NCBI GenBank assembly: GCA_016191235.1
Contig: JACPOZ010000048.1
Span: 1 to 64,000, forward strand
Source: Gammaproteobacteria bacterium
GTDB lineage: Bacteria > Pseudomonadota > Gammaproteobacteria > Ga0077554 > Ga007554
DNA length: 64,000 nt
Reading direction: 5' to 3'
A program made the position numbers and the translations under genes. Below are positions 1 to 34,533 of the stretch, in pieces. How positions within the stretch are numbered: position 1 is the stretch's first letter; each line of letters starts with the position of its first letter. The notes beneath the pieces were generated by a model. The model was not told where the DNA came from. It searched no databases and saw only the letters and a list, made by a program, of their open reading frames with translations.

Positions 1-343
1 CCCTCCTGTCTCTCGCTGATGGTTGTTTCGCAACTCCATCTTCTCAGAGATTGGGCGGGATGCCCTGCTTTTATGACTATTATCGCGCTTACGCCCGCAA
101 AATCTGGCTCAATTTACCCACAGATTTTGCTGAGGAGCCAACATTGGGAGCAAGGTTTTTCTAGCCGTCTTTCTCTCGGACAAGTCGCGCCCTTTTATTT
201 CCCTTCTCTTTTGGCTGATACCCCATAAATTTTTCAGCCGCTTCACGTAATCAGATTGTCATATTGCCAGACTATTATTGCCTTCAGGTTACATAACATT
301 CAAATGGCGTCACCACATTTTTAATAGTGGTCGCTGAATTTTA
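1..343. other. Left-edge region without a confident gene
   Basis: No gene here can be assigned with confidence. A plus-strand frame is open from base 3 to a TAG at 162-164; its last residues (DYYRAYARKIWLNLPTDF and onward) look protein-like, so the 3' end of a gene entering from the left is possible. The track ORF at 19-228 is in another frame and has no good ribosome site. Bases 165-343 are AT-rich leader DNA before the DsbA-like gene. I see no clear terminator or RNA gene. Confidence 0.3.
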
Positions 344-1129: not shown

Positions 1130-1181
1130 TGGCTGTTTTATTTGCAAGATGAGCCGGCAGATTAAGTGATATTCGATTTGT

Positions 1182-5030: not shown

Positions 5031-5569
5031 AAATCAGAACAAATTTTTCGACGTCATCCGCCGGTATGGTGCCGCGGATCATGATGATTTTATGGGTGGC
5101 CGCGCTTCTAGCCGCGCTGCTAATCGCTTGGATGGCTATGCAAACATCCCAATTGAAACAGACGAAACTGGATTTGGAGCATCAGTTGTCCAAACTCCAA
5201 AACAGGCACGTCGCTGGGATACCGAAAGTATTTCCCCGCCAGGAAGAGCTTGCCACGTTAAAAGGGCGTATAGCCGCCATTTCATCCATATCAAATAATC
5301 GGGAAGGGTCGCTATCTGCATTCCTGAGAAAAATAGAGTTGTTACTCCCTGACGAAGCCTATCTTGTGACTCTTCATTACAAGGGCGACACCAGGGAGGC
5401 TCAGATCACGGCTGAGGCTGGCAGCGCAAAAATACTTACTGGGTTTTTACGTGATCTTGAAAAAGAGAAGGAATTCCTTGAAGTACTGTTGACAAAACAG
5501 TCGCAGCGCACATTGAACGATAAACAGATTGTTCAGTTCGATCTGCGTATAAAGGAGCGTCTTTCATGA
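5027..5569 (+). CDS. PilN-like inner-membrane alignment protein
   Basis: A 180-aa bitopic protein: short cytoplasmic N-terminus, one transmembrane helix at about residues 13-35, a helical segment with heptad-like character (about 40-65) and a small periplasmic ferredoxin-like domain. This architecture is that of PilN or the C-terminal half of GspL. The start ATGA overlaps the PilM-like stop. With the next two genes it would form the inner-membrane alignment complex bridging the cytoplasmic ring and the secretin. Confidence 0.75.
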   Translation: MKIRTNFSTSSAGMVPRIMMILWVAALLAALLIAWMAMQTSQLKQTKLDLEHQLSKLQNRHVAGIPKVFPRQEELATLKGRIAAISSISNNREGSLSAFLRKIELLLPDEAYLVTLHYKGDTREAQITAEAGSAKILTGFLRDLEKEKEFLEVLLTKQSQRTLNDKQIVQFDLRIKERLS

Positions 5570-6135
5570 TGGCGACGCATCCTTTTTCGGAAAACATATT
5601 GTATTCACTACGCCATCCCCTGATCAAGGCGGGGATGGTGGCTAGTGGCTGCGCCATAACCCTGGCCATTGTGGTTTGTTTTGGATATTGGATGCCCGTA
5701 CGTAGCGACATCAATAGTCTCGCGGAATCGGTTAATTACGAACGTAAGCGGATTATTGATGATACGCGATCCGTACAAATCTATAGCGCATATTTGAGCG
5801 CTACAAAACAACTTACGGCCATTGATAAAAAAATTAACAGCCCCGCCGGGCATGCTGATCTTGTTAATAACATTGATAATCTCGCAATACACAGAAAAGT
5901 AGCTATTATTTCTGAATCCTACGATGAGGGTAAGGAAAGGAATGGTTATACACCGCTTTATATGGAGTTGGCATTACAGGGAGACTATCAGGGGCTGAGG
6001 GAGTTTCTTGTTGATATTCGTAGCCTGCCAACCTGGACTGTTGTTGGAGAGGGTTCGATAAGCCGCTTGGCAGGACAGCGGGATTTGGTTAAGGCGCAAT
6101 TGCGCTTAATAACTTATCACAAGACGGGCAGATGA
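5566..6135 (+). CDS. PilO/GspM-like inner-membrane protein
   Basis: A 189-aa bitopic protein with a transmembrane helix at about residues 20-43, a periplasmic coiled-coil stretch (SVNYERKRIIDD region) and a C-terminal ferredoxin-like fold (MELALQGDYQGLREFL). The sequence LQGDYQGLREFLVDI is typical of PilO. It overlaps its neighbours by 4 nt on both sides. It should heterodimerise with the PilN-like protein. Confidence 0.78.
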   Translation: MMATHPFSENILYSLRHPLIKAGMVASGCAITLAIVVCFGYWMPVRSDINSLAESVNYERKRIIDDTRSVQIYSAYLSATKQLTAIDKKINSPAGHADLVNNIDNLAIHRKVAIISESYDEGKERNGYTPLYMELALQGDYQGLREFLVDIRSLPTWTVVGEGSISRLAGQRDLVKAQLRLITYHKTGR

Positions 6136-6764
6136 AACGTTACAAGGAAATTGCCATCAGGCATCGCAATGCAATATTGCTAGTGCTGGCATTTATCTTA
6201 ATGGTCGTAAACGTATTGAATTGGGGGGGCTGGAGTCAGGCCAATTCACAGGAAGGGCCTGAAAGGGGAACGATGGCAGGGGAATTTCAGGTTTCTGATT
6301 TTCAGATAAAAGATCTGAATTTTCCTGCGGAACAAGATGGGGAAATTGGCCGTGACTTGTTCTATCCAGTTTTTGAGGAAGAGTCAGAACCTGTTAATGA
6401 GATGGCGTCCATTGCGGTGGATAATGAAAATATTAAACAAATAACTAATGCCGATATACCCCCCCCGATTTCGCAAAAAACTCCTGAACAACTTGAAGAG
6501 GAGATCGTGCGGTCTGACTTGGCTAATTTTAAATATGTTGGTTCTATTTGGCGCGGAGGACAAGGCCAGGCGCTTTTATTGAACACGGACAAGCGTTATT
6601 TTGTCTTTTCTGGAGACAAGGCCGGTAGCCGCTTTGTCGTTGAAAGGATAACGACCGACGCGGTCTCTCTAAGAGACCCTGCCACAAATGTGACGGCTCA
6701 AATACTAATATCCGGAGGGGCCTCGATAAACGCGGCTCAAGAAATAAGTGATGTTGAAAGATAG
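6132..6764 (+). CDS. PilP/GspC-like periplasmic linker protein
   Basis: A 210-aa protein with one N-terminal transmembrane helix (about residues 14-32), a low-complexity acidic linker, and a C-terminal beta domain (about 130-200; GGQGQALLLNTDKRYFVFSG, then VSLRDPAT) resembling the HR domain of GspC/PilP that contacts the secretin N0 domain. Unlike classical PilP it shows no lipobox, so it is anchored like GspC. It lies directly before the secretin gene (6-nt gap). The assignment rests on architecture and position. Confidence 0.62.
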   Translation: MKRYKEIAIRHRNAILLVLAFILMVVNVLNWGGWSQANSQEGPERGTMAGEFQVSDFQIKDLNFPAEQDGEIGRDLFYPVFEEESEPVNEMASIAVDNENIKQITNADIPPPISQKTPEQLEEEIVRSDLANFKYVGSIWRGGQGQALLLNTDKRYFVFSGDKAGSRFVVERITTDAVSLRDPATNVTAQILISGGASINAAQEISDVER

Positions 6765-6770
6765 CGTCGG

Positions 6771-9053
6771 ATGAAACCGATGAAAAGAAGAATATGGTGT
6801 TTCATGGTTGTCGCGTTGTGCCTCTTGGTCGCGGCTTGTGCCGGTCCAATTCGCAAAGCGGAGATTTATGAAGATAAACAGGAATGGATAAGCGCTGTCA
6901 TTGAATACCGAAAGGCCTATAACGATGACCCAAGGAATGTGGAGTATAAGGCACGCCTAAAGCATGCTGAATTCAAGGCGGCTGATTATTATTACCGTCA
7001 AGGGATGCTGCTTTTAGAGCGGGAAAAGATCGATGAATCCATTGTTCAGTTTCAGCAGGGTTTGACGGCAATGCCGGGTGATGAGCGGTTAATGCAGGCA
7101 ATGAACAAGGCGCTTGCAAAAAGAGAGGCCAATAACCTTTATCAAGAGGGAGTTCTGATAAACGGCGCGGGTAATGTCGGCGAGGCGAAGCGTATATTTC
7201 AGAGGGCCATAAATGTCTATCCTGATCACAAAGCGGCATTAGAGGCCCTTGCCAATATTGAAAATAAAACCCCTGAGGAGCGTGATGGTGAGAAGTTTTC
7301 GTTGACTTCAACATCTCCCATATCGCTGAATTTCCGTCAAACCGATATGCGCTCTGTTTTTGAGTTCGTTGCCAAGTCTTTTGGCATAAATATTATATTT
7401 GATGAGGGTATCAAGACCATATCCCCTGTCACAGTATTTGCCAAAGATGTTTCTTTCGAGCAAGCTTTGGCCCTTATTAATGTGGCTACCAAGACTTTCT
7501 ATAAAAAAATCAGCAAAAATACCATCATTGTTGTGCCGGATTCGAAGGACAAGCGTGGTCAATATGAGGATCATGTGATGCGCACTTTTTATTTGAGCAC
7601 TATCCGGGCCAAGGAGGTGGCGGATATCCTGAGGGGTGTGATGACAATCAGGAAAATCATCGTCAACGAACAGTTAAATACACTGGTTGTCCGTGATACC
7701 GATGAGGTTATCAGGCAGGTGGCAAAGATTATTGATATCAACGACAGAAAGCCCGCTGAAATAGTTTTGGAAGTTGAAATTCTGGAGATGAATCGCACCA
7801 AGGCCGAGCGTCTTGGCCTTGATCTTGGGTCATATCAAATCAGCGCTACGGTTCCGTCAGCCATCGCTCTGAGTGGATCCATTAGCGGCGCGATTGAGAA
7901 AGCCTCCTTACTTACACTTCCTTCAGCGACCTTCCGTTTTTTTAAGCAGGATGTAGATGCCAGGACGCTTGCCAATCCCAAAGTAAGGGTTGTGAACGGA
8001 AAATCCGCAAAAATCCATATCGGTGACCGTGTTCCATTGCGTGTTTCCACTATCATCAATACGACGGGGCAGGTGAACACAACCTATGACTACAAAGACA
8101 TCGGCATAAAGCTTAACGTTGAGCCAACCATAAATCTGGATAACTCATCACTAGTAAAGCTTAGTTTGGAAGTGAGCTCCCTGGGGGCGAATCTGGGAAC
8201 GGCGACAGAGCCGGCATACCGTATTGGCACCCGGAATGCTGAGACACTTATGCTGTTGCGTGATGGTGAAACGGCGATTCTAGGTGGTCTTATTCGTGAT
8301 GAGGATCGCAAAACGGTAGTAAGGATTCCATTGCTGGGAGACATTCCTGCCGCAGGTTCTCTATTTAGTTCCTACGATATGTCAAAAGAGCGCACCGACG
8401 TATTGCTGACGATCACTCCTCGTGTTGTGCGAGGCTGGGATCTGCCCGCCAAGGAAGCTCGCCAATTTTATTCTGGAACGGAAGATAAATATCTTGATCA
8501 AGCCCCCTTTCAGAGCCTGGCTTCTCCATCATCGGCTGCGGCAAAGGAGAATGCCGGGATTCAGGAATCCCCGCAGGTGCCGGTTAATGAAAATCCGGCT
8601 GTACCCCCATCGTCGGGTCAGTCGATTGCGCCAGGTATTGGGGGGAATGTTATCCAGTCTCCCGCTCTCGTCTTTTCTAAGCCAGCTTATATGGCGATCA
8701 ATCAAGACGAGGTGGATGTTCAGCTTCTTTTTGACAACCCCTCAAAAAACAGGGAGATCGCGACGGAAATACAATTCAATCCAAAGGTTCTGCAATTTGT
8801 CGGGAGTGATGCGGGTGAATTCAATTTTGGGTTTTTCCAAGCCGACAAAAATGAGGCGGGAGATGTTGTACGTCTAAGCGCCGGGTTTGCAAATGATGCT
8901 CTCTCAAAAGAGAAAGGTATCCTGGCAACCCTCCGGTTCCGTGCGTTAAAGCCAGGTGTTTCCGCCCTGACGTATGGTGTCTCATCGGTCAAAAATGCAG
9001 CGGGTGACATCATTAGTCCGCAGTCAAATATCTCTCGTGTCATTGTACGGTAG
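6771..9053 (+). CDS. Secretin lipoprotein with TPR repeats and C-terminal cohesin-like domain
   Basis: A 760-aa outer-membrane secretin. The N-terminus has a lipoprotein signal (LLVAAC, Cys23). Residues 30-170 hold TPR-like helical repeats, 180-330 hold STN/N-domains, and about 330-600 form the secretin pore domain, with IPLLGDIP and the TITPRVV end. After a Pro/Ser linker there is a cohesin-like beta domain (about 630-755; VQLLFDNPSKN to ATLRFRALKPG). TPR plus secretin plus cohesin resembles MshL/PilQ-like secretins of environmental Proteobacteria rather than classical GspD. It is the outer-membrane exit of the machine in this operon. The cohesin-like domain could bind a partner at the pore; that is inference. 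Confidence 0.88.
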   Translation: MKPMKRRIWCFMVVALCLLVAACAGPIRKAEIYEDKQEWISAVIEYRKAYNDDPRNVEYKARLKHAEFKAADYYYRQGMLLLEREKIDESIVQFQQGLTAMPGDERLMQAMNKALAKREANNLYQEGVLINGAGNVGEAKRIFQRAINVYPDHKAALEALANIENKTPEERDGEKFSLTSTSPISLNFRQTDMRSVFEFVAKSFGINIIFDEGIKTISPVTVFAKDVSFEQALALINVATKTFYKKISKNTIIVVPDSKDKRGQYEDHVMRTFYLSTIRAKEVADILRGVMTIRKIIVNEQLNTLVVRDTDEVIRQVAKIIDINDRKPAEIVLEVEILEMNRTKAERLGLDLGSYQISATVPSAIALSGSISGAIEKASLLTLPSATFRFFKQDVDARTLANPKVRVVNGKSAKIHIGDRVPLRVSTIINTTGQVNTTYDYKDIGIKLNVEPTINLDNSSLVKLSLEVSSLGANLGTATEPAYRIGTRNAETLMLLRDGETAILGGLIRDEDRKTVVRIPLLGDIPAAGSLFSSYDMSKERTDVLLTITPRVVRGWDLPAKEARQFYSGTEDKYLDQAPFQSLASPSSAAAKENAGIQESPQVPVNENPAVPPSSGQSIAPGIGGNVIQSPALVFSKPAYMAINQDEVDVQLLFDNPSKNREIATEIQFNPKVLQFVGSDAGEFNFGFFQADKNEAGDVVRLSAGFANDALSKEKGILATLRFRALKPGVSALTYGVSSVKNAAGDIISPQSNISRVIVR

Positions 9054-9534
9054 GAAATACAAAGTCCGGGGAGTCACCTTCGTCGAGTTGCTGGTGACGT
9101 TGGTGATTCTTTCGATTCTCGCTGCGGTTGCATTGCCTTATGCGGAAATTACGGTGCGCCGCAACAAGGAGATAGAGTTGCGCCAGGCGCTGCGTGACAT
9201 GCGTGGTGCCATCGATCGTTTTCATCTTGATTGGGAAACTGCAAAAATATCGAAGCTGAATAATGCCGTTAGCGAAGATGGTTACCCAAAAACCTTGCAA
9301 GTATTGGTTGAAGGCGTGGGTGCTGATCAGGCCAAAGGGGGGAAGATTAAATACTTGCGCCGTATTCCTGCCGACCCGTTCTCCGACCCAGGTAAGCCAT
9401 CACTGGAGCATTGGGTGCTGCGCGGCTATCAGGATGCGCCCGATGCCACCTCGTGGGGAGGAACAGATGTTTACGATGTACGGTCAGCAAGCCGTCGCAA
9501 GGCGATTGATGGCAGCTTCTACAAGGATTGGTGA
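9037..9534 (+). CDS. Pilin-like protein 1 (class III leader, E5)
   Basis: About 165 aa with a prepilin-type N-terminus: basic leader, cleavage after Gly in RG|VTFVELL with Glu at +5, then a hydrophobic helix (VTLVILSILAAVALP). The soluble part resembles GspG-type pseudopilins. The track ORF begins at 8974, but that would give an overlong leader; GTG 9037 or TTG 9043, inside the 3' end of the secretin gene, gives a normal 10-12 residue leader. The start remains uncertain because none has a strong ribosome site. Function: minor or major subunit of the pseudopilus built by this operon. Confidence 0.8.
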   Translation: MSLYGRKYKVRGVTFVELLVTLVILSILAAVALPYAEITVRRNKEIELRQALRDMRGAIDRFHLDWETAKISKLNNAVSEDGYPKTLQVLVEGVGADQAKGGKIKYLRRIPADPFSDPGKPSLEHWVLRGYQDAPDATSWGGTDVYDVRSASRRKAIDGSFYKDW

Positions 9535-9535
9535 C

Positions 9536-9913
9536 ATGCGCCGCGATATTGTCCACAGCGCGCGCGGCTTTACCTTGGTGGAGCTGATGGTAGTGCTGGT
9601 TTTGATTGTCATTCTCGCCAGTCTTGCAGCACCCTTGGTAACAAGTTCAATACAGCGCGGCCGTGAGGCTGTGCTCAGGGAAGATTTGTTGGTGATGCGA
9701 AAAGCGATTGATAATTATTATGCGGATACGGGAAGTTATCCCGAGGATATGAAGCAACTGATGGAAAAACGTTATCTGAGGCAAATCCCGGTGGATCCTT
9801 TAACCGAACGAAGTGATACGTGGCGTGAGGTTCGTGATGATGCGGGGATTATTGATATAAAAAGCGGAGCGGATGGGAAATCCGCCAATGATGTGTCATA
9901 CAGCGAGTGGTAG
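9536..9913 (+). CDS. Pilin-like protein 2 (GspG-like)
   Basis: A 125-aa pseudopilin. Leader MRRDIVHSARG is followed by FTLVELMVVLVLIVILASLAAP, a textbook prepilin peptidase site with Glu at +5. The C-terminus (SGADGKSAND region) resembles the calcium-binding end of GspG. The track ORF starts at 9263, but ATG 9536, just after the stop of pilin-like protein 1, gives the correct leader. It requires a PilD-type peptidase, which is not encoded in this window. Confidence 0.85.
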   Translation: MRRDIVHSARGFTLVELMVVLVLIVILASLAAPLVTSSIQRGREAVLREDLLVMRKAIDNYYADTGSYPEDMKQLMEKRYLRQIPVDPLTERSDTWREVRDDAGIIDIKSGADGKSANDVSYSEW

Positions 9914-9953
9914 TTTTTTTATTCTAATCTGGTTTGATGTGAGGGGCTGATCT

Positions 9954-10388
9954 ATGAAAAAGAGCATGAGATGGTCTTTGGGTTTTACCATGATGGAGTT
10001 GCTGATTGTTCTGGTTATTATCGGATTGTTAGCGGCTTTGGTAGGCCCTGCGTTGTTCCAGCGCATCAATCCGGCAAAACAATCGGCGGCGCGCAGCCAG
10101 ATTGAAAATTTCATGACAGCTCTCGATACCTATTTTGTCGACAACGGACACTTTCCAACGACGCAACAGGGTTTTTTGGCGCTGCGTGTAAAGCCGGAAG
10201 GCGATGAAAAGTGGGCGGGGCCTTATCTTAAAAAAGACGTACCAAATGATCCATGGGGAAATCCATACCAATACCGTGCTCCTGGACACAATGGTGGCTA
10301 TGATATTTTATCTCTGGGCGCGGATGGTAAAGAGGGTGGCGAAAATGAAAATAAGGATATCAATAGCTGGGAGATCGACAAGAAATAG
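9954..10388 (+). CDS. Major pseudopilin GspG-like protein
   Basis: A 144-aa protein with all hallmarks of GspG: leader MKKSMRWSLG|FTMMELLIVLVIIG with Glu at +5, conserved WGNPYQYRAPG turn and the C-terminal calcium-site loop SLGADGKEGG followed by DINSWE. This is the best candidate for the major subunit of the pseudopilus. It starts 40 bp after the previous gene, with GAGG upstream of the ATG. The 3' end overlaps the next pilin-like gene by 44 nt. Confidence 0.93.
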   Translation: MKKSMRWSLGFTMMELLIVLVIIGLLAALVGPALFQRINPAKQSAARSQIENFMTALDTYFVDNGHFPTTQQGFLALRVKPEGDEKWAGPYLKKDVPNDPWGNPYQYRAPGHNGGYDILSLGADGKEGGENENKDINSWEIDKK

Positions 10389-10893
10389 CCAGGCTGGATT
10401 TACCTATGTAATGGTGCTGGTCGCGGTTGTAATAACCGGCCTGATGGCCGGGGTTGCAGCCACCATCACATCGCGGGTTATGCAGGCCGAGAGAGAGACG
10501 GAATTGCTTTTCCGTGGCCTGGCGTATCAGAATGCGATAAAAAGCTATTATCAGGCCGGCAAGCAACTTAATACGTTTACCTTTCCGCGCTCGCTAAACG
10601 ATCTACTGAAAGACCCGCGCTTTCCTGGCAAGCGTCACATTCGTGCCCTGTATGCGGACCCGATGGGTAGTGGTGAGCGGGAGTGGCGTGTAATCCGCGC
10701 AATTGATGGCGGTATCACCGGTGTTGTCAGCTCAAGCAAACAAAAATCTTTAAAGACCGCCAACTTTCCCGTCGGTCTGGAATCGTTGGCGGGCAAGAAA
10801 TCCTATGCGGAATGGATTTTCCTGTATAACGCCCCCGCAGCAATCCAAACCCCACGTCCCGTCATGCCACGTATACCTGTGCAGCGGAAATAG
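10345..10893 (+). CDS. Pilin-like protein 4 lacking Glu5
   Basis: About 182 aa from ATG 10345 (MKIRISIAGRSTRNSQAG|FTYVMVLVAVVITG). The leader Gly and hydrophobic helix are those of a type IV pilin-like protein, but position +5 is Met instead of Glu, as is known for the tip pseudopilin GspK. It overlaps the GspG-like gene by 44 nt and ends the operon. The soluble part (RALYADPMGSGEREWRVI) resembles proteins annotated as type II secretion pseudopilins. The track start at 10204 is too far upstream. It probably caps or initiates the pseudopilus. Confidence 0.75.
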   Translation: MKIRISIAGRSTRNSQAGFTYVMVLVAVVITGLMAGVAATITSRVMQAERETELLFRGLAYQNAIKSYYQAGKQLNTFTFPRSLNDLLKDPRFPGKRHIRALYADPMGSGEREWRVIRAIDGGITGVVSSSKQKSLKTANFPVGLESLAGKKSYAEWIFLYNAPAAIQTPRPVMPRIPVQRK

Positions 10894-10942
10894 ATGATTT
10901 GGGTATCCCCTTTGCCCCGTAAAAACCCCTGATATTTTTGTA

Positions 10943-11056
10943 ATGGTGAAGGGCATCCTCAAAAAGCATGGCTTCCCGCCGGACTTGCAGGACGAAGCGA
11001 CCAAGACGGTGCTGGCGCAGGCGGAGCTGCTATCGGCCATGTGGGCGGTGGCATAA
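10943..11056 (+). pseudogene. hsdR: Remnant of type I restriction subunit HsdR (C-terminus)
   Basis: A 37-codon fragment reading [20 protein letters not shown] and continuing to [10 protein letters not shown] and a stop matches, by my recognition, the extreme C-terminus of HsdR proteins (pattern ILRKHGYPPD...AT..VL.QAE.LS..W). Nothing else of the roughly 1000-residue protein, and no hsdM or hsdS, is present. It is a scar of a deleted type I restriction-modification system between the pilus operon and the miniature element. Confidence 0.6.
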
Positions 11057-25530: not shown

Positions 25531-25580
25531 CGCCAGTTAATTGGCGATAATTGACAAAAAATGTCAATAACATATATAAA
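25531..25580 (+). promoter_or_regulatory. Promoter with palindromes upstream of rloA
   Basis: -35 TTGACA at 25551-25556 and -10 TATAAA at 25575-25580 (18-bp spacer). A perfect palindrome ATTGACA-N5-TGTCAAT (25550-25568) covers the -35, and a second inverted repeat CGCCA-N6-TGGCG lies at 25531-25546. The layout suggests repression of the RloAB operon. Confidence 0.55.
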
Positions 25581-25643
25581 ATTAATGTAATATTGCTTGA
25601 TGGCTGTAATTGTGGCGTTTTTATGAATTTAAAGGAGGTGATC

Positions 25644-26924
25644 ATGTTGATTGAGTTCAGCGTGACGAATTTCAGGTCTATCCAATCGCGGCAAACATTA
25701 AGTTTGGCCAAATCCAAGCTTAAGGAATCCAAGGGGTTAGATCAGAACACCTTTACGCCAAGTGAGTTGCCTGGTTTGGGTTTGCTCAGATCGGCCGCTA
25801 TCTACGGCCCTAATGCGGCGGGTAAATCCAATCTGCTACTGGCGTTGCGCACTATGAAGGATATCGTCGTGGAGTCGGCCACCGAATGGCAGCGGGGCGA
25901 TGAAGTGCCAGTGAGTCCCTTCAGGCTTGATCCTCAATCTGCAATGGCGCCCACGGAGTTCGAGGTGATCTTTATCGCGGAGGGGGTGCGCTATCAATAT
26001 GGTTTTTCCGCGACACGGGTGCAGATTATCGAGGAGTGGCTGATCGCCTATCCCAAAGTGCGAGCCCAGCACTGGTTCGCCCGACGTTGGAATGAAAAGA
26101 AGGGGGGGTATGACTGGGATATGGGCAGCGCCCTGCAAGGACAAAAGCAGCTATGGGAGGATTCTACTCGTAGTAATGCGCTGTTCTTGTCTACAGCTGT
26201 TCAGTTAAACAGCCAGCAGCTACAGCCCGTTTATGATTGGTTCAAGAAAACATTGCGCACAACAAGCATTGCAGGTTGGGGGCCAGGTTTTACTGCGTCA
26301 TTGTGTGGTGAGTCTGTAAACAAGGCCAAAGTGTTGGCGTTTCTTAGAGCGGCGGATATTGATATTCAGGATGTGTTAATTGAGAGAAAAGTGTTCGATG
26401 CCAGCGATCTGCCCAAGGGTATGTCGGATGAGATCAAGGCAATGATTGTCAAAAAGATGGAAGGGAAGGAGGTGCTTGCTGAATTGAATACGGTGCATCA
26501 GGATTCCACCGGCAAGCCCATCGCTTTTGATTTTGAGGAGGAGTCCGATGGCACCCAAAAGCTCTTTTCGTTTGCAGGGCCGTGGCTGGATACGCTGAAA
26601 AATGGCTATGTGCTTTTCATTGATGAGTTGCACGACAACCTGCACCCCAAACTGGTGCAGTTTCTGGTGGAGCTGTTCCACAGTGACGAAACCAATCCCA
26701 AGAATGCCCAATTGGTGTTTACTACTCATGAAACCTCCATCCTGAATCAGGAGGTGTTTCGCCGAGATCAAGTGTGGTTCTGCGAGAAGAGCGATCATCG
26801 TTCCACGACCCTTTTCCCGCTGACGGACTTTAGTCCTCGCAAGGGTAGGGAAAATCTTGAGATGACCTATCTTGCCGGGCGTTATGGCGCTTTGCCTTAT
26901 GTACGCAAGTTAAAAGCAGGCTAA
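25644..26924 (+). CDS. rloA: RloA-like AAA-family ATPase
   Basis: A 426-aa SMC/ABC-like ATPase: N-terminal FSVTNFRSI, Walker A in YGPNAAGKSNLL (about residue 55), Walker B VLFIDELHDNLHP near 330 and a switch His in TTHETSIL. This is the overcoming-lysogenization-defect-like, AAA_15/21 layout seen in RloA and in the ATPase of PARIS-type defence. ATG 25644 is preceded by a perfect AAAGGAGGTGATC ribosome site, so the upstream track start is not used. It is 4 nt upstream of rloB. It probably senses phage or foreign DNA and controls the RloB effector. Confidence 0.88.
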   Translation: MLIEFSVTNFRSIQSRQTLSLAKSKLKESKGLDQNTFTPSELPGLGLLRSAAIYGPNAAGKSNLLLALRTMKDIVVESATEWQRGDEVPVSPFRLDPQSAMAPTEFEVIFIAEGVRYQYGFSATRVQIIEEWLIAYPKVRAQHWFARRWNEKKGGYDWDMGSALQGQKQLWEDSTRSNALFLSTAVQLNSQQLQPVYDWFKKTLRTTSIAGWGPGFTASLCGESVNKAKVLAFLRAADIDIQDVLIERKVFDASDLPKGMSDEIKAMIVKKMEGKEVLAELNTVHQDSTGKPIAFDFEEESDGTQKLFSFAGPWLDTLKNGYVLFIDELHDNLHPKLVQFLVELFHSDETNPKNAQLVFTTHETSILNQEVFRRDQVWFCEKSDHRSTTLFPLTDFSPRKGRENLEMTYLAGRYGALPYVRKLKAG

Positions 26925-26928
26925 CACC

Positions 26929-27600
26929 ATGGGTACGGATAATCTTCACCATAAACGCAAAGCCAGACAGGGCAGCGACCTTGCCCGTAAAAAAGCCAAG
27001 CGCGCATCCTATGCCAAAGTGTTGATCGTGTGTGAAGGCGAGAAAACAGAACCCAATTATTTCGAGGCGCTGAAAGACCATCTGGCGTTAAACAGCGCCA
27101 ATATTTATGTAACTGGCGAGTGTGGCTCCAGCCCCCTTTCTATTGTCGAATATGCCATGCAGCGTTATCGGGATGAGCAGCATGCGGGCGACCCATTTGA
27201 CAAAGTGTTTTGTGTTTTTGATAGGGATGCACACGACACCTATCAGCAAGCCCTGGATAAGATAGCCGCAGCCAAACCTAAAGATATCTTTGTGGCCATC
27301 ACTTCCGTCCCCTGTTTTGAATACTGGCTGTTACTGCACTTTGATTACACCACCGCGCCCTTTCGTGCTGCTGGAACAAAGAGTACAGGGGATAGGGTGG
27401 CAGATAAATTGCGGAAATATATTCCGGACTATCAAAAGGGCGACGGCTCTGTTTTCGACCGGCTAGTTGATCAATTGCCACGGGCCAAGGCGCACGCCTC
27501 CAAAGCGCTGATATATGCGAAGGCCAATAATTCAGATAACCCGAGCACCCATGTTCATGAGCTTGTTGAGTATCTGCAGAACATAAGGGCGGATCTATAG
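26929..27600 (+). CDS. rloB: RloB-family TOPRIM-like effector
   Basis: A 223-aa RloB protein: basic N-terminus (HHKRKARQGSDLARKKAKR), then a TOPRIM-like core with Glu36 in LIVCEGEKTEPNYF and the DxD pair Asp98/Asp100 in CVFDRDAH, plus the conserved CFEYWLLLHF. Glu and DxD are the metal-binding residues of TOPRIM nucleases, so a nuclease or tRNase-type effector is likely; the target is unknown. Partner of the ATPase upstream; rlo genes were first described as restriction-linked orfs in Campylobacter hsd loci. It ends 53 bp before the tRNA-derived repeat. Confidence 0.88.
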   Translation: MGTDNLHHKRKARQGSDLARKKAKRASYAKVLIVCEGEKTEPNYFEALKDHLALNSANIYVTGECGSSPLSIVEYAMQRYRDEQHAGDPFDKVFCVFDRDAHDTYQQALDKIAAAKPKDIFVAITSVPCFEYWLLLHFDYTTAPFRAAGTKSTGDRVADKLRKYIPDYQKGDGSVFDRLVDQLPRAKAHASKALIYAKANNSDNPSTHVHELVEYLQNIRADL

Positions 27601-27652
27601 GATAGAGGAGGTCTGAAACAACGCTTATCACATGGATAAGACAATATCGAAG

Positions 27653-27699
27653 ATGGTGCCGGCGGAGGGAATCGAACCCCCGACCTACTGATTACAAAT
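27653..27699 (-). repeat. att-like direct repeat, copy of tRNA-Thr 3' end
   Basis: 47 bp identical to 33171-33217, covering the CCA end, T-arm, variable loop and part of the anticodon stem-loop of tRNA-Thr. The rest of the tRNA is missing here. It is the distal boundary of the res-mod-abi island, as expected after site-specific integration into a tRNA 3' end. Confidence 0.9.
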
Positions 27700-27763: not shown

Positions 27764-30418
27764 CTATCCAATAACAGCATCAAGCTGCTGGTAAACATTT
27801 CTGCCCTTTTGGTCGGATTCTTCCGCCATGAGGAAGAGGCACTTGCCACCGCTCTTCTCTGCCCAGATATTGCCCACGGCCTTTTTCTCGCGTGAGTCGT
27901 CATTGGTCTTGTAAGGTTCGCCCTTGTACTCGATCACGAACAGGCGGCCATCCTCCAGCTCTGCCACAAAGTCAGGATAGAACCAGCCATTGGCCAGCGG
28001 CAGACGGAAAGAAGCCTGTTGCCGGTCAACCAGATTCCTGGCCCAATGTTTAACCTTGGGGCTGGCATCCATCGCCTGGGCGCACAGAAACTCCTCACCC
28101 TCCACCTTCAAATCTTCAATGATGGGGTAATAGTGCTTCTTAAATTTGTAGCGCCCGCTATAAAAGGGGCTGCGGGCCGGATAAAGTCCCGGTTTGAATT
28201 CAAAGCTGTAACGGAAGCTGGACTCAAGCGGTACAACATTATCAAACATTGTTTGCTGAAACCCATTAGCCGCTGCTTTGCTTTGCAGTAACACCAGCCG
28301 CTGGCGCAAGGCACGTACTAACAGAAATTTACTACGAATCAATGCAGTTAATGTATAGCCCTTGTCTCGAATCAAATGAGATATTGTCGATATTAAAAAA
28401 CGATTAAGAATGCTCTGATTCAGAGTGGCGTTGCGGAGTTGCCGATCCAACCAACGTACCAAATCGTTTTCGGTAATCTCTGTTTCGACCAAGTCGAGGT
28501 TGTAAACCTCCTTTTCTTCGGCAATATGGTATGTGACCTTCTGCCCCTCCATATCCACCTCAAAGGTGGTATCGCTCTGTTTGAGCGAGAAGTTGGGCAG
28601 CTCAACGGCAAACTCCAGCGGCGACCAGTCACCATTCAAAAACAGAAAGGTCTCCGGCTCCAGCAGCTCAAGTTCACCCTGCTGTCCGGCGCACAGACGC
28701 GGCAACGGCGCAAAGGGGATGCCACGCTCAGAGGGTGAGAGTGTCGCCTCAACGCGGGCATTGTGTTGCTCTATCTGCCCCAGAAGCTCTTTTTTATCAC
28801 CGCCCTTGAATGGCTTCAGAATCTCATCATGCAAGGCGTCATCGAGCTTGCCCTTCACCTCCAGCCTGAAGCCACTCTCTGTTTCAATGATGGAGACATT
28901 GCTCAATAACGGTTCATGCTCTGGTTTGAATTCCGGTTTGCTGGGCAGATCAAGGGTAAGAGGTGGTTCAGGCGGCATAGCAACAGAATCACCACCGCCA
29001 AACAGATCATCGGGAACGCCATGACGAATATGAGCCGGAACCTCCATCGTCTCAAAGCCCATATCCACCAACTTATCAGCCAGCGTTTTCGCCACTTCCG
29101 AAAACTTTGGCGATGCCAGATGGGCATAGGCCCGGTTCAATGCCTCCACCTTGCGGCGGCGGGCAAAGGGCATGCGCAATACCCGCCCTAACAACTGCTC
29201 CGCATCCTTGCTGGAACGTACATCACGCACCGAACAAAAGACGTAGGCAAAAGAGCAGTCCCACCCCTCTTTCAGCGCCTCAATGGTAATGATGTATTCA
29301 ATCTTGCATTCGGGCGAAAAGAGGTTGATGCCGTCCAGCTCCCGCTGTGTGCCCGTCACCACGGCAATCCGTTCATCCTCAATCTTCAGCTCATCCATGA
29401 GATAAGCCTTCAATTTTTCCCACGGCACTTCGCCGTTCTTCTTGTCGGCCTGTAGCAGCACAATCGGGCGGATGTAGTCGCTATCCTTCTGCGCCTCCAG
29501 CGCCAGTTTGTTGCGCGTCAGCATCGCATCGCGCACAGCGGCCTGCCAGTCGTTATGCTCCGTCAGCATGATCGGCAGCTTGATCATATCCTCCGCCTTC
29601 AACTCAGAGGCGGAGACGTGATAGAGCATATTGGAGGCAGAGGTTGCCGATTGATCCGGCGTGGCGGTGAACTCGATCACCGCTGCCGGATGTACACGCT
29701 TCAACGTTTCAAAGGTCAGCGGCGTGCGGGCGTTGTGCGCCTCGTCCATGATCACCAGCGGATGTTTTAACGCCAGCAGATTGGCGAATGAATATTTGAT
29801 CTTGCCCAGCTGCGAAGGGCCAAGGCCATTCTCTTTCAGGTCAGCCTCCGTCACGCGCTCCAGCCGTTCATCTTTTGGATTCACACCGACAAAGTGCGGC
29901 TCAAAATCTTCGTGATAGGCATAGACCTTACGGGCACTGGTATCAGTCACGCGCAGATTGGCCAGGGTGCTCACCACCACAATCAACTGCGAACCAAGAT
30001 CGTGGTGGCGAATCTGTGTCACCTCATCCGCATCCAGCACCCGCACCCGCTGATCAAAGGCGCGGTCCAGCTCTGCGCGGTAGGGGTGGCCCGGCTGCTT
30101 CAACGCCTCCAGCGTCTGCTGCTGAATAGTGTTGGTCGGCACCAACCACAACACAATCGGGTAATCCTGTTCCAGATAGGCGCGTGTCGCCACCTTGATG
30201 GCGTGTGAAGCCAGCACGGTTTTACCACCGCCCGTCGGCAGGCGCAGGCAGACATAAGGCACTTCACCAAAACCATAACCACGATAGGTGTAGCTGCCCT
30301 TGCCTTGTGCCGCCAGGCTCTTGGAAAACGCCTGCTCGACGGGCATCAAACGGGCATCGGCCAAAAACTGTTCCAACGCTTTGATGGTCTGCTGTTGATA
30401 GTGTTTGAGGTTGAACAT
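27764..30418 (-). CDS. res: Type III restriction enzyme, Res subunit
   Basis: An 884-aa SF2 helicase-nuclease. Walker A is LPTGGGKT, the DEAD-like box is MDEAHNARTPL followed by EFTATPD, and motif VI is QLLGRVLRMP. The C-terminal endonuclease has Asp in YPDFVAEL and EYKG, a PD-(D/E)xK site. It translocates on DNA and cleaves between inverted sites in complex with Mod. The start codon directly abuts the mod stop. It lies within the tRNA-flanked island and shows no frame damage, so it is probably active. Confidence 0.95.
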   Translation of the reverse strand: MFNLKHYQQQTIKALEQFLADARLMPVEQAFSKSLAAQGKGSYTYRGYGFGEVPYVCLRLPTGGGKTVLASHAIKVATRAYLEQDYPIVLWLVPTNTIQQQTLEALKQPGHPYRAELDRAFDQRVRVLDADEVTQIRHHDLGSQLIVVVSTLANLRVTDTSARKVYAYHEDFEPHFVGVNPKDERLERVTEADLKENGLGPSQLGKIKYSFANLLALKHPLVIMDEAHNARTPLTFETLKRVHPAAVIEFTATPDQSATSASNMLYHVSASELKAEDMIKLPIMLTEHNDWQAAVRDAMLTRNKLALEAQKDSDYIRPIVLLQADKKNGEVPWEKLKAYLMDELKIEDERIAVVTGTQRELDGINLFSPECKIEYIITIEALKEGWDCSFAYVFCSVRDVRSSKDAEQLLGRVLRMPFARRRKVEALNRAYAHLASPKFSEVAKTLADKLVDMGFETMEVPAHIRHGVPDDLFGGGDSVAMPPEPPLTLDLPSKPEFKPEHEPLLSNVSIIETESGFRLEVKGKLDDALHDEILKPFKGGDKKELLGQIEQHNARVEATLSPSERGIPFAPLPRLCAGQQGELELLEPETFLFLNGDWSPLEFAVELPNFSLKQSDTTFEVDMEGQKVTYHIAEEKEVYNLDLVETEITENDLVRWLDRQLRNATLNQSILNRFLISTISHLIRDKGYTLTALIRSKFLLVRALRQRLVLLQSKAAANGFQQTMFDNVVPLESSFRYSFEFKPGLYPARSPFYSGRYKFKKHYYPIIEDLKVEGEEFLCAQAMDASPKVKHWARNLVDRQQASFRLPLANGWFYPDFVAELEDGRLFVIEYKGEPYKTNDDSREKKAVGNIWAEKSGGKCLFLMAEESDQKGRNVYQQLDAVIG

Positions 30419-31948
30419 CTAGCGTGTCCTCACGTCGTAGGGAATCTGTTTGAAGGTGATGCTCTCGCTCTGCAAACGCGCCGTACCCAAGCGGCTGCTC
30501 TCGCCATAGATCACCTTGGGGCCATCGTGCTCCGGCAACTCTGCCAGAACCGGGCCAGTCAGCACGTTGCCCCCTTGCGGGCGGCGATCACCGAGTACGC
30601 CGTTATAGAGCAGGTAATAGGCCGTGCCATTGTGTACACCCAGCAGCGGCGACTTGCTGCGCTTGCTCCATGGTGTGTGCGTCTCCAGATACCAGACATG
30701 GGCCGCCAATTCAGCAAAGCGAATGTCGGGACGAATCGCGCCAAACTCATCAAACACCGTTGGCCCCAGACGATAGAAATGGAAACCGCCACCGCCTTGC
30801 CACTCGACTGATTTGGATATGCCGCCTTGTTCGCCGTCCACCACCTTTTTCAAGCGTGGCTGGCAGTGGGTCTCCGCATGTTCACCCATCTCGATACCGA
30901 TGTAACGGCGGTTCATTTTGTGGGCGACAGCGGCGGTGGTGCCGGAGCCAAGAAAAGAATCCAACACTAATTCATTGGTGTTTGTTGCAATAGCGATTAT
31001 TTGCTCAATTAGCTTTTCCGGTTTTGGTGTCCCAAATGGCTCGGAGTTAACAAGAGTAAGTTGCTCCTTTCTACCATCCTGAGTGTGACCAACATCACCC
31101 CATAGCCAAATTGTTTGCGAGACAACGCCATCATCAGCAACAGTGGATAAGTGTCGTTTGAAAGCAGGGACTTTGCTTTTTCCATTTGTTCCCCACCAGA
31201 GTAGATCTTTTGCTTTATGTTCTTCGTAGGCATCTTTGCTATAAGCCCAAACGCGCGTGCGTTTAGGCCAGATTTCTTCACCAGTGACAGGATGAATAAT
31301 TGGATAATAGAGGTTTGGCCGTTCATCGGCGCTTTTTGCGCACGTGTAATCACCGGATTTCCATGGCCCTCTTGAATCATCGTCTGGGTTTTTGTAAGCA
31401 GAATTTGATTTTTCTGATCTTGATAGTTTGTTTGGTCTCCAGACAGTCTTGTTTTTTGCGTATATATGAATGTGGTCGTGGTTATCACTAAACCAAATAG
31501 CATCATTTGCCGGTGCATATTTCTTTTGCCACACTACATTTGCTATGAAGTTTCTCCGCCCAAACACCTCATCCATCATCACCTTCAGATAATGGGCCTC
31601 GTTGTCATCAATCGACACCCAGATGCTGCCATCCTCTGACAGCAGCTCCCGCAACAGCTCCAGCCGTGGGTACATCATGCAGAGCCACTGGCTATGCTCC
31701 AGGTTGTCGTCGTAATGTTCAAAGGCCGATTTGGTGTTGTAAGGCGGGTCGATGTAGATGCACTTCACTTTGCCCGCATAGAGCGGTAGCAGCGCCTTGA
31801 GCGCCTCCAGGTTGTCGCCCTGAATCAGCATGTTCTCGGTGTCGGCATCACCATAAGAAAGGTTCTTCACCCCTTGCAGCAGGCGGTAAGGTACGTGCCT
31901 GGCAGTTTTAACCGCCTCGCCTTTATTCAACCAATCAAGAATAGGCAT
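30419..31948 (-). CDS. mod: Type III DNA methyltransferase, Mod subunit
   Basis: A 509-aa beta-class amino-methyltransferase: motif IV DPPYNT near residue 69 comes before motif I DSFLGSGTTAAVA near 335, with the target recognition region between. It would methylate an asymmetric site (N6-adenine most likely) and give Res its specificity. Bases about 30960-31560, which encode the recognition region, look clearly richer in A+T than the flanking parts of the gene. No simple-sequence repeat for phase variation is visible. Transcribed mod-res, zero spacing. Confidence 0.95.
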   Translation of the reverse strand: MPILDWLNKGEAVKTARHVPYRLLQGVKNLSYGDADTENMLIQGDNLEALKALLPLYAGKVKCIYIDPPYNTKSAFEHYDDNLEHSQWLCMMYPRLELLRELLSEDGSIWVSIDDNEAHYLKVMMDEVFGRRNFIANVVWQKKYAPANDAIWFSDNHDHIHIYAKNKTVWRPNKLSRSEKSNSAYKNPDDDSRGPWKSGDYTCAKSADERPNLYYPIIHPVTGEEIWPKRTRVWAYSKDAYEEHKAKDLLWWGTNGKSKVPAFKRHLSTVADDGVVSQTIWLWGDVGHTQDGRKEQLTLVNSEPFGTPKPEKLIEQIIAIATNTNELVLDSFLGSGTTAAVAHKMNRRYIGIEMGEHAETHCQPRLKKVVDGEQGGISKSVEWQGGGGFHFYRLGPTVFDEFGAIRPDIRFAELAAHVWYLETHTPWSKRSKSPLLGVHNGTAYYLLYNGVLGDRRPQGGNVLTGPVLAELPEHDGPKVIYGESSRLGTARLQSESITFKQIPYDVRTR

Positions 31949-31972: not shown

Positions 31973-32869
31973 TTACTGTTGCCAGATCGGCAGGGCTTGC
32001 CAGCTAATTGGAAAGCCCATGGCTTTTGTGTCGATGGCGTGGTTGCCGATCAACGCCTTGAGGCGTGTTTTCCAATGGTGATTGGGGCTGATGGTGTCCA
32101 TGAAAAAGGCAACCATCACCAGTGTGTTATAGAGTTTTCTGTCCTGCTCTGGATTGAAATTTTGATGCAGCCCTTGGGGCTTGGTGCGCGGCAGTTCCAT
32201 GGTCTTGGTCATGCGCCGGTTCCACAAGCGGCTATGGTGGGCGCAGACGTTGCGGATGTAGGCCAGGTGCTCAATGAAACTTTCCAGCACCTTGTCGGAG
32301 AGTTGGTAAGTCCGGGCAATGGCGGCCCGGGTGTCCGCCGGTTTCAGGCTCTTGATCCAGCGGGATAGCTGCCCCAGTGACATGACTTCGCACACTGCCC
32401 AGACAGGCGGGGTGTCGGGATGGGTATAGGTGTTGTTGTAGTGGCCAACAAATACCTCATCCGATCTTTCCAGCTCTTTGTTTAGGGAGGCAAGGTTGCT
32501 CTCATGCCAATGGTTGTTTTTGCTCAATGCGGGTTCAAGGTAGGCGTGCGCGCCATGCTGATGGGCGAGGTGGTATGCCCATTGGGTGCGCAGTGAAACT
32601 TCAATCCGTTCTAGCGCATCAATCAGCAATAGGCGTAACTCCCGGTCGAAGATGTAAAGATTCAGCGCATCTTCAAAGGTGATGCCCGGCTTGAACTGGT
32701 GGCTTTGAAGATCAGCCTCCAGCGGCAACCAGTAGCCGCGCAGGCGGTAGTAATTGAGATGCTTCAGGTAGTGAATGGCGCTTTCATGGTCGGCGATCAC
32801 CATGCCACGCGTTTCTAAAAGGTCGAGCTGTTCCTGGAAGGTCTTGGGGAGTTTGGTGAAGTGCATCAC
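31973..32869 (-). CDS. Abi_2 (AbiD/AbiF-like) abortive infection protein, HEPN
   Basis: A 298-aa Abi_2-family protein: N-terminal TFQEQLDLLETRGMVI, HYLKHLNYYRLRGYWLP and the family signature IRNVCAHHSRLWNRR near residue 215, which contains the R-x4-H pattern of HEPN RNases. These proteins stop phage growth by cleaving RNA. Start is GTG 32869 or ATG 32866. It is 24 nt upstream of mod and may be cotranscribed. A compact small-RNA unit lies just upstream (32878-32972). Confidence 0.9.
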   Translation of the reverse strand: MMHFTKLPKTFQEQLDLLETRGMVIADHESAIHYLKHLNYYRLRGYWLPLEADLQSHQFKPGITFEDALNLYIFDRELRLLLIDALERIEVSLRTQWAYHLAHQHGAHAYLEPALSKNNHWHESNLASLNKELERSDEVFVGHYNNTYTHPDTPPVWAVCEVMSLGQLSRWIKSLKPADTRAAIARTYQLSDKVLESFIEHLAYIRNVCAHHSRLWNRRMTKTMELPRTKPQGLHQNFNPEQDRKLYNTLVMVAFFMDTISPNHHWKTRLKALIGNHAIDTKAMGFPISWQALPIWQQ

Positions 32870-32877
32870 TACCCCAG

Positions 32878-32937
32878 AAAAAAGTAACCCGCCGGTTTGA
32901 GCGTGCCCCGAAGGGTATAGGCTTGGCGGGTTTTGTT
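32878..32937 (-). ncRNA. Candidate small structured RNA upstream of the Abi_2 gene
   Basis: Predicted RNA of about 60 nt starting near 32937. Its outer 8-bp stem is AACCCGCC (32932-32925) with GGCGGGTT (32893-32886). Within the loop is a small CCC-UUCG-GGG tetraloop hairpin. The outer stem is followed by AC and then six T residues (32883-32878), as in an intrinsic terminator. It ends 9 nt before the Abi_2 start. A conserved abiF RNA motif has been reported from computational surveys (from memory); whether this belongs to it is not tested. It could be an RNA antitoxin or a leader attenuator. Confidence 0.55.
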
Positions 32938-32943
32938 AAAAAT

Positions 32944-32972
32944 ATTATCGGCCACTTTTCCCTGCATCTCAA
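32944..32972 (-). promoter_or_regulatory. Promoter of the small RNA upstream of the Abi_2 gene
   Basis: Reading the minus strand: -35 TTGAGA (32972-32967), 17-bp spacer, -10 GATAAT (32949-32944). The predicted start is 6-7 nt downstream, exactly at the 5' edge of the hairpin RNA. Confidence 0.5.
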
Positions 32973-32996
32973 GTTAAATTTTTCACTAAATGAATA

Positions 32997-33131
32997 CTAC
33001 TGATTACATCGGGGCACGTCTACTTTGATGATATATCCGGGATAAGGTGAGTTGCGAAGAATCTGCGCGGGGAATTTTGAGGGTTTAGAAGCTTGCGAAA
33101 ACACCACAAACCGTCTACATATTGTCTACAT
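32997..33131. other. Probable fossil attP arm region
   Basis: AT-rich non-coding DNA on the island side of the tRNA-Thr repeat. It contains a 12-bp match to the repeat core (CTACTGATTACA, 32997-33008) and three GTCTAC motifs (33018, 33113, 33124), the last two as the direct repeat GTCTACAT spaced by 3 bp. These look like recombinase arm sites left when the integrase gene was lost. No integrase coding sequence is visible here. Confidence 0.4.
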
Positions 33132-33170
33132 GTAAAAATCAAAATCGGATTTTTCAACCTATTGATTTTA

Positions 33171-33217
33171 ATGGTGCCGGCGGAGGGAATCGAACCCCCG
33201 ACCTACTGATTACAAAT
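33171..33217 (-). repeat. att-like direct repeat within tRNA-Thr
   Basis: The second copy of the 47-bp repeat at 27653-27699, here part of the intact tRNA-Thr gene. It marks the tRNA-proximal boundary of the res-mod-abi island. Confidence 0.9.
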
Positions 33218-33247
33218 CAGTTGCTCTACCAACTGTGCTACGCCGGC
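33172..33247 (-). tRNA. tRNA-Thr (anticodon TGT)
   Basis: A complete 76-nt cloverleaf on the minus strand including encoded CCA: acceptor GCCGGCG, D-arm AGCACAGTTGGTAGAGC, anticodon arm CTGATTTGTAATCAG with anticodon TGT, T-arm GGGGGTTCGATTCCCTC. It is the integration target of the defence island, whose DNA lies beyond its 3' end. Confidence 0.97.
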
Positions 33248-33396
33248 ATAATGACATTAAAAATATAAAAAACACGCTTCCGCATGATAGTAGCGGCACA
33301 TTCTATGGCACATGCCTCCTAAAGGCAATCTTCGCCAACAAGGTCCGCGCAAACCGGCGATGGGGAAAGCCAAGGTCGGAGGCTTCGCGGCCTTGC

Positions 33397-34533
33397 CTAT
33401 GTGTTTCTATTCGCAATTTGCCCTTTGATTTCTAGTGCCACGGCCAATGCTCTATCGACGGAGGCGTCCACGCAGGTGTAGTGCCCCATTTTGCGCCCAG
33501 GGCGGGCTTCGCGTTTGCCGTAGAGATGGAGTTTGGTTTGGGGGTGGTTAAGGAGGCGCCCCCACTGCGGCGCGCCCTCGCCCCACAGGTCGCCGAGGAG
33601 ATTGACCATCACGGAAGGGGTGAGCAGGCGGGTGTCGCCGAGCGGCAGGCCGCACAGAGTGCGTACCTGTTGCTCGAATTGATTGGTAACGCAGGCGTCT
33701 AGCGTGTAGTGGCCGCTGTTGTGGGGGCGCGGGGCCATTTCGTTGATGAGCAGGCGCGCGCCTTGCAAAACAAAAAACTCCACGGCCAGCACGCCGCAAT
33801 AATCGAGACGCTCCGCCAGTGCAACGGCAGTCTGCGTGGCCTTGAGTGCCAGGTCATCGGAGATGCGCGCGGGGGCGATACTCACGTCGAGGATGCCATC
33901 ACAGTGCTGGTTTTCGGCCACGGGATAGGCGGCGGTCTGGCCATCCGCGCCGCGCGCCAGCACTACGGAGACTTCCCGTTCCAGTGGCAGCAGCTCCTCC
34001 AGCACGCAGGGCGCGGCGCCCATTTCCTCAAAGGCTGCCCATGCCTCTTCAACACTGTTCACCCGCGCCTGGCCCTTGCCGTCGTAACCAAACTGGCTGA
34101 CCTTGAGCAGGGCGGGTACGCCGATCTGCTGCATCGCCTGGACTATATCTTGCCGTGAGTGGATCACCGCGAAGCGGGCACAGGGGAAACCGTTCGCCGC
34201 CAGGTAGCTCTTTTCCGTGATGCGATTCTGGGCTACCGCCACAGGCTCCGCCGCTGGGCGTACAGTGCAGAATTGGGCAAGAAAGCGCAGGGTATCTGCG
34301 GGAACATTTTCGAATTCAGTGCTGATGGCGGCACAGGTTTTACCTAGCTGCTCCAGCGCGCTCCTGTCAGAAAAGCCGGCAACAATATGGACATCGGCAA
34401 AGTGCGCCGCCGGACTGTCAGGGTCGGGGTCCAGCACGGTGACCTGATAGCCCATGGTACGCGCCGCGACGGTAAACATGCGGCCCAACTGGCCACCGCC
34501 AAGGATGCCTAACATCGCACCCGGCAGTATCAT
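33397..34533 (-). CDS. purK: N5-carboxyaminoimidazole ribonucleotide synthase PurK
   Basis: A 378-aa ATP-grasp enzyme: N-terminal [15 protein letters not shown]-grasp core ([16 protein letters not shown]), [14 protein letters not shown] motif and a C-terminal PurK domain (KMGHYT). It carboxylates AIR with ATP and bicarbonate to N5-CAIR in de novo purine synthesis. The start overlaps the purE stop by 4 nt. Confidence 0.97.

What the first reader, a model, noticed from the sequence alone, without database searches (positions are those of the whole stretch)
25531..27600. RloA-RloB pair next to, but outside, the tRNA-bounded island
An ATPase with Walker A/B and a TOPRIM-like RloB (Glu36, Asp98/Asp100) form a two-gene unit of the type found in restriction-linked loci and PARIS-like defence. 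It lies 53 bp beyond the distal repeat, so it arrived separately or the island inserted in tandem. Three defence modules therefore share 8 kb.
Basis: partly seen in the sequence, partly recalled or inferred. Interest (0 to 1): 0.7.

Follow-up and report, generated by a model that had tools for sequence, protein, structure and literature searches.

The report
AbiL-type RloA–RloB phage-defence gene pair
The sequence holds an intact, horizontally acquired two-gene cassette of a known kind (RloA–RloB, the AbiL abortive-infection type): an ATPase that probably restrains a toxic nuclease until a phage attacks, sitting beside but separate from a mobile island with two other defence systems.

Summary
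rloA (25644-26924, +) and rloB (26929-27600, +) are intact, tightly coupled, and end 53 bp short of the distal copy of a 47-bp tRNA-Thr repeat (27653-27699 / 33171-33217). Family profiles file them as AAA_21 ATPase + RloB, best matching AbiLi/AbiLii of lactococcal AbiL. The predicted RloB topology, conserved Glu36 and Asp98/Asp100, and a register-true profile alignment to OLD-type TOPRIM support a TOPRIM nuclease. It is not PARIS: the defining DUF4435 partner was tested and is absent. Elsewhere the pair is a mobile stand-alone cassette: RloB follows RloA in 144 of 160 fetched loci, it occurs in prophages and plasmids, and few immediate neighbours are restriction genes. All seven same-family genomes searched lack it. 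The adjacent tRNA-Thr island (abiF RNA + AbiF + type III restriction-modification, no integrase found) has related loci elsewhere without RloAB, so separate arrival is favoured over tandem insertion. Most likely mechanism (inferred): RloA holds RloB inactive; a phage signal releases it and it cleaves RNA, probably tRNA, stopping translation. An ordinary new member of a known kind; the tRNA-Thr/abiF island next door is the more curious object.

The parts
25644..26924 (+). rloA: ABC/OLD-type ATPase (AAA_21; AbiLi-like), 426 aa, predicted sensor/inhibitor
   Evidence: PF13304 E 2.6e-36; PADLOC AbiLi E 2e-99; AlphaFold pLDDT 96.6; Foldseek hits to Rad50, OLD nuclease and PtuA
26929..27600 (+). rloB: RloB-family TOPRIM-like nuclease, 223 aa, predicted effector (AbiLii-like)
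   Evidence: PF13707 E 2.5e-43; AbiLii E 1.5e-31; AlphaFold pLDDT 93.4 with beta1(E36)-alpha-beta-alpha-beta3(D98/D100)-alpha-beta4; profile alignment to OLD-type TOPRIM with E and DxD in register
25551..25580 (+). candidate promoter TTGACA-18-TATAAA, with the -35 box inside a perfect ATTGACA/TGTCAAT inverted repeat (25550-25568)
   Evidence: read from sequence; the stricter consensus scan does not score it: suggestive only
25631..25643 (+). strong Shine-Dalgarno sequence AAAGGAGGTGATC directly before the rloA ATG
   Evidence: read from sequence
27653..27699 (.). distal direct repeat (3' half of tRNA-Thr) bounding the neighbouring island; RloAB lies outside it
33172..33247 (-). tRNA-Thr(TGT), the island's integration target; proximal repeat copy at 33171-33217
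27764..30418 (-). neighbouring island: type III restriction enzyme (Res)
   Evidence: PADLOC REase_III E 8.9e-242
30419..31948 (-). neighbouring island: type III methyltransferase (Mod)
   Evidence: PADLOC MTase_III E 5.8e-206
31973..32869 (-). neighbouring island: AbiF/AbiD-type Abi_2 gene
   Evidence: PF07751 E 2.6e-59; PADLOC AbiD E 5.2e-80
32887..32930 (-). abiF RNA (RF03085) just upstream of the Abi_2 gene
   Evidence: 38.1 bits, gathering score 37

Best explanation
A complete RloA-RloB (AbiL-type) abortive-infection cassette, acquired horizontally and independently of the neighbouring tRNA-Thr island. Shown here: two intact coupled genes with family-conserved catalytic residues, an ABC/OLD-type ATPase fold, a TOPRIM-type arrangement in RloB, and a patchy mobile distribution. 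Inferred: RloA assembles into an ATP-bound multimer that senses an infection product and holds RloB inactive. On triggering, RloB is released as a metal-dependent TOPRIM nuclease and nicks RNA, most likely tRNA, so that translation and phage growth stop and the cell is arrested or killed. The trigger is unknown.
For: Family assignment. Conserved residues over 122 RloB and 93 RloA sequences. Confident models. RloB profile against OLD-like TOPRIM scores 22.7, against at most 15.95 in 60 column shuffles, with E36 and D98/D100 in register; against DUF4435 20.8, shuffles at most 17.7. RloB directly follows RloA in 144 of 160 loci; of the other 16, about seven end within roughly 250 bp of rloA at the contig end. 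In two distant loci the second gene is a HEPN ribonuclease instead, pointing to an exchangeable RNase-type effector. GC 0.49-0.50 against 0.59 around. Absent from 7 of 7 same-family relatives. Found in a P2-like Klebsiella phage and on mobilizable plasmids. Literature: AbiLii of F. nucleatum inhibits growth of E. coli (PMC3985639); a Clostridium TOPRIM_OLD (D44, RloB-type):AAA pair was validated as toxin and neutralizer (PMC10440598); AriB of PARIS is a TOPRIM tRNA nuclease paired with an ABC ATPase sensor (PMC12409363).
Against: No activity was measured. Foldseek of the RloB model gives no PDB hit below 1e-3; the first hits are generic Rossmann-like proteins, and retron Eco2 (a TOPRIM effector) is rank 15 at 4.7e-3. 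No AriA is among the top RloA structure hits. PMC3985639 saw no antitoxin effect of AbiLi for the F. nucleatum pair, and lactococcal AbiLii was not toxic in E. coli. The tRNA target is by analogy only.
Confidence: 0.72

Rival explanations
1. RloAB is a defence pair, but RloB is a DNA nuclease/nickase (as OLD and Gabija GajA are), degrading phage or host DNA rather than tRNA.
For: The best-scoring TOPRIM profile tested was OLD-like; OLD-class TOPRIMs are DNA nucleases (PMC10568477).
Against: Two-gene separate TOPRIM layout as in PARIS; HEPN ribonuclease replaces RloB in two loci.
Confidence: 0.2
2. RloAB functions as a guard of the adjacent type III restriction system or AbiF, sensing anti-restriction proteins as PARIS senses Ocr.
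For: 53 bp spacing to the island; OLD-ABC + nuclease modules occur as backups at BREX loci (PMC12839542).
Against: Only a few of 134 immediate neighbours of homologous pairs are restriction genes; related abiF loci at tRNA-Thr carry no RloAB in the stretches held; a P2-like phage carries RloAB on its own between replication and portal genes.
Confidence: 0.08
3. RloAB and the tRNA-Thr island form one tandem accretion: RloAB entered at the same att site and its outer repeat decayed.
For: RloAB fills exactly the gap between conserved flank (to 25491) and the distal repeat (27653); tRNA-Thr 3' ends carry integrases in two relatives.
Against: No third repeat within 3 mismatches in 64 kb; left-boundary alignment no better than shuffles; 27601-27652 lacks the arm sequence found beside the tRNA.
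Confidence: 0.15
4. The junctions are an assembly artefact of a draft genome, e.g. misjoined at the 47-bp repeat.
For: The genome is 78.6% complete in 73 contigs; neither the trypsin-side nor the purK-side junction is seen in relatives, where tRNA-Thr lies elsewhere.
Against: Left flank runs 10 kb at 90% identity into a same-genus genome and the composition shift fits a real insertion; the genes themselves are unaffected.
Confidence: 0.1

Closest known systems
AbiL (AbiLi/AbiLii), Lactococcus lactis abortive infection system
   Same: two-gene ATPase + RloB-family protein; best profile match for both genes
   Different: divergent sequence, Gram-negative host, chromosomal rather than plasmid-borne; no tested phenotype here
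RloA/RloB of Campylobacter hsd loci (origin of the family name; location from memory and PMC10440598)
   Same: same Pfam families and order
   Different: not inside a type I hsd operon; beside, but outside, a type III island
PARIS (AriA/AriB)
   Same: ABC ATPase + separate TOPRIM nuclease; E and DxD motifs in comparable register
   Different: RloB is not DUF4435 (PF14491), the family used to define AriB
OLD / Gabija GajA
   Same: OLD-type ABC ATPase and TOPRIM-like partner
   Different: TOPRIM is a separate gene, not fused; no GajB helicase beside it
Septu PtuA/PtuB
   Same: RloA fold resembles PtuA
   Different: partner is TOPRIM-like, not HNH

Membership tests
AbiL / RloAB | adjacent ATPase (AbiLi) and RloB-family (AbiLii) genes in one transcription direction | tested here: met
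   4-bp gap between genes; pairing in 144 of 160 homologous loci
AbiL / RloAB | intact catalytic residues in both genes | tested here: met
AbiL / RloAB | abortive-infection phenotype / RloB toxicity | not testable with these tools
   needs phage challenge; toxicity known for one homologue (PMC3985639)
PARIS | AriA-type ATPase (AAA_15/AAA_21) | tested here: met
   (generic profile, not discriminating)
PARIS | AriB with DUF4435 (PF14491) | tested here: not met
   no PF14491 match to RloB at E up to 0.1; none in this genome
TOPRIM superfamily | Glu after beta1 and DxD after beta3 of a beta-alpha-beta-alpha-beta-alpha-beta core | tested here: met
   AlphaFold topology and residue positions; profile alignment in register
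TOPRIM superfamily | significant structural match to solved TOPRIM proteins | tested here: inconclusive
   retron Eco2 at E 4.7e-3, rank 15, behind generic Rossmann-like hits
OLD / Gabija | ATPase and TOPRIM in one polypeptide | tested here: not met
   two ORFs separated by a stop codon
Septu | HNH partner PtuB | tested here: not met
   partner is RloB, no HNH match

The most novel reading that the evidence does not exclude
The RloAB pair has joined an integrase-less mobile family of tRNA-Thr islands (conserved arm sequence + abiF RNA + AbiF + type III restriction) that are moved in trans, and works as a guard that fires when phages disable those systems.
Probability: 0.06. Interest if true: 0.6.

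Novelty: new member of a known kind. Interest (0 to 1): 0.27.

Why it matters
RloAB/AbiL is fairly common (28 of 369 genomes sampled from this class, against 7 of 274 for the DUF4435 family of PARIS), yet no solved relative was found by sequence search and the papers read name neither its trigger nor its target. A compact, intact pair with conserved residues is a usable test case for whether RloB is a tRNA nuclease like AriB. The locus also shows independent defence cassettes accumulating at one site.

Tried and rejected
Looked for a third tRNA-Thr repeat or a decayed outer att left of rloA: none. Looked for an integrase in the island with three tRNA-Thr-site integrases as queries: none. Looked for an RloA-RloB fusion: one read-through frame (L143), but the RloA end looks frame-shifted, so not counted. 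Tested linkage of RloAB to type III restriction: one Mod-like neighbour among 160 loci. Association of RloAB with tRNA-Thr elsewhere: not evident beyond a few distant prophages. PDB sequence search for both proteins: no hit. The abiF hairpin is not more stable than shuffles, so its identification rests on the Rfam model. The sigma-70 scan finds no promoter by its rules. A scan of viral contigs for the island's arm sequence found nothing.

Full report
OBSERVATION. Two + strand ORFs, 25644-26924 and 26929-27600, are separated by 4 bp. Pfam gives AAA_21 (E 2.6e-36) and RloB (E 2.5e-43); PADLOC gives AbiLi (2e-99) and AbiLii (1.5e-31). The 47-bp repeat at 27653-27699 and 33171-33217 is the 3' half of tRNA-Thr(TGT) and occurs only twice in 64 kb. 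RloAB ends 53 bp outside it.

THE PROTEINS. RloA was modelled from 93 sequences (pLDDT 96.6). Foldseek finds Rad50-like ABC ATPases, OLD nuclease 6p74 and PtuA of Septu and retron Ec78. Walker A, Walker B, signature-like ESxGT and the H-loop histidine are conserved. RloB was modelled from 122 sequences (pLDDT 93.4): E36 follows beta1 and D98/D100 follow beta3, the TOPRIM arrangement. E36, D98, D100 (Asp or Glu), E131 and H137 are near-invariant or invariant. Foldseek alone is inconclusive. A profile alignment to OLD-like TOPRIM domains puts E36 on E and DxD on DxD with score 22.7, where 60 column shuffles reach at most 15.95; against DUF4435 the score is 20.8, shuffles at most 17.7. PMC10440598 reports the same RloB-TOPRIM relation by HHPred.

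DISTRIBUTION. RloB is absent from all three same-genus and four other same-family genomes and present in 28 of 369 genomes sampled from the class. The best class match is 66% identical and lies in another family. GC is 0.49-0.50 against 0.59 in the flanks. RloB follows RloA in 144 of 160 loci from genome and viral contigs. About seven of the remaining 16 are cut off by a contig end soon after rloA. In two (L280, L282) the second gene is a RiboL-PSP HEPN protein. The pair occurs in a P2-like Klebsiella phage between the replication and portal genes and on small mobilizable plasmids. Immediate neighbours are very diverse; ResIII matches 4 and HSDR_N 2 of 134. So it travels as a stand-alone cassette.

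THE SITE. Left of 25491 the window is collinear with a same-genus genome for 10 kb at 90% identity. Right of 33411 purK is conserved. In that relative (G003) the trypsin gene, purK and tRNA-Thr lie in three other places. The 7.9 kb between, with RloAB, island and tRNA, is specific to this genome. The genome is an incomplete draft (78.6%), so a misassembly at the 47-bp repeat cannot be excluded.

THE NEIGHBOUR ISLAND. It holds type III Res and Mod, an Abi_2 gene and an abiF RNA (RF03085, 38.1 bits). No integrase was found. AbiF relatives lie within about half a kilobase of tRNA-Thr (TGT or CGT) in five other genomes of several families (L081, L322, L324, L325, L327), in three of them with a Mod-like N-terminus next; several of these contigs end early. 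None of the stretches held there has RloAB. One genome (G262) has both RloAB and an abiF/tRNA-Thr locus, on different contigs. This favours separate arrival of RloAB.

MECHANISM. Shown: intact coupled genes, conserved active-site candidates, folds, mobility. Inferred: RloA restrains RloB; a phage product releases it; RloB cuts RNA, most likely tRNA. The basis is analogy with PARIS AriB (PMC12409363), toxicity of a Fusobacterium AbiLii (PMC3985639), toxin-neutralization of a Clostridium RloB-type pair (PMC10440598), and the HEPN swap. A DNA target remains possible.

VERDICT. Interest is low to moderate.

Noticed in passing
window 32887-32930 (-), gene 31973-32869: The island's Abi_2 gene carries an upstream abiF RNA (RF03085), so it is probably an RNA-regulated AbiF system (PMC12373285 treats one in C. 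difficile; PMC12737573 discusses links of toxin-antitoxin systems to CRISPR-Cas; both seen in a search listing only).
   Followed up: partly
window 32869-33247; L081, L322, L324, L325, L327: AbiF relatives lie within about half a kilobase of a tRNA-Thr gene (CGT or TGT) in five other genomes of several families, some followed by a type III Mod-like N-terminus: a recurrent tRNA-Thr island type without a recognised integrase.
   Followed up: partly
window about 32997-33130: The tRNA-proximal arm, conserved at 67% in G007, holds an extra CTACTGATTACA (part of the repeat) and repeated GTCTAC motifs, possibly recombinase arm sites.
   Followed up: partly
L079 (G000:C41:38566-48519): The same genome has an apparent filamentous prophage (Zot-domain protein, secretin, tyrosine recombinase) bounded by tRNA-Thr(CGT) repeats; its recombinase could act in trans on the island.
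   Followed up: partly
L280:6384-7094, L282:7214-7948: Distant RloA homologues paired with a RiboL-PSP HEPN protein instead of RloB.
   Followed up: partly
window 33334-33411 and 25491: tRNA-Thr with 160 bp upstream is joined to purK here, but sits next to other genes in relatives: rearrangement or assembly join.
   Followed up: partly
window 1-11000: GC falls to 0.46-0.54 over the first 11 kb against about 0.6 beyond, suggesting another foreign segment.
   Followed up: no
G000:C1:22921-23121 (L312): The same genome also encodes an OLD-like TOPRIM protein (PF20469, 667-codon frame).
   Followed up: no
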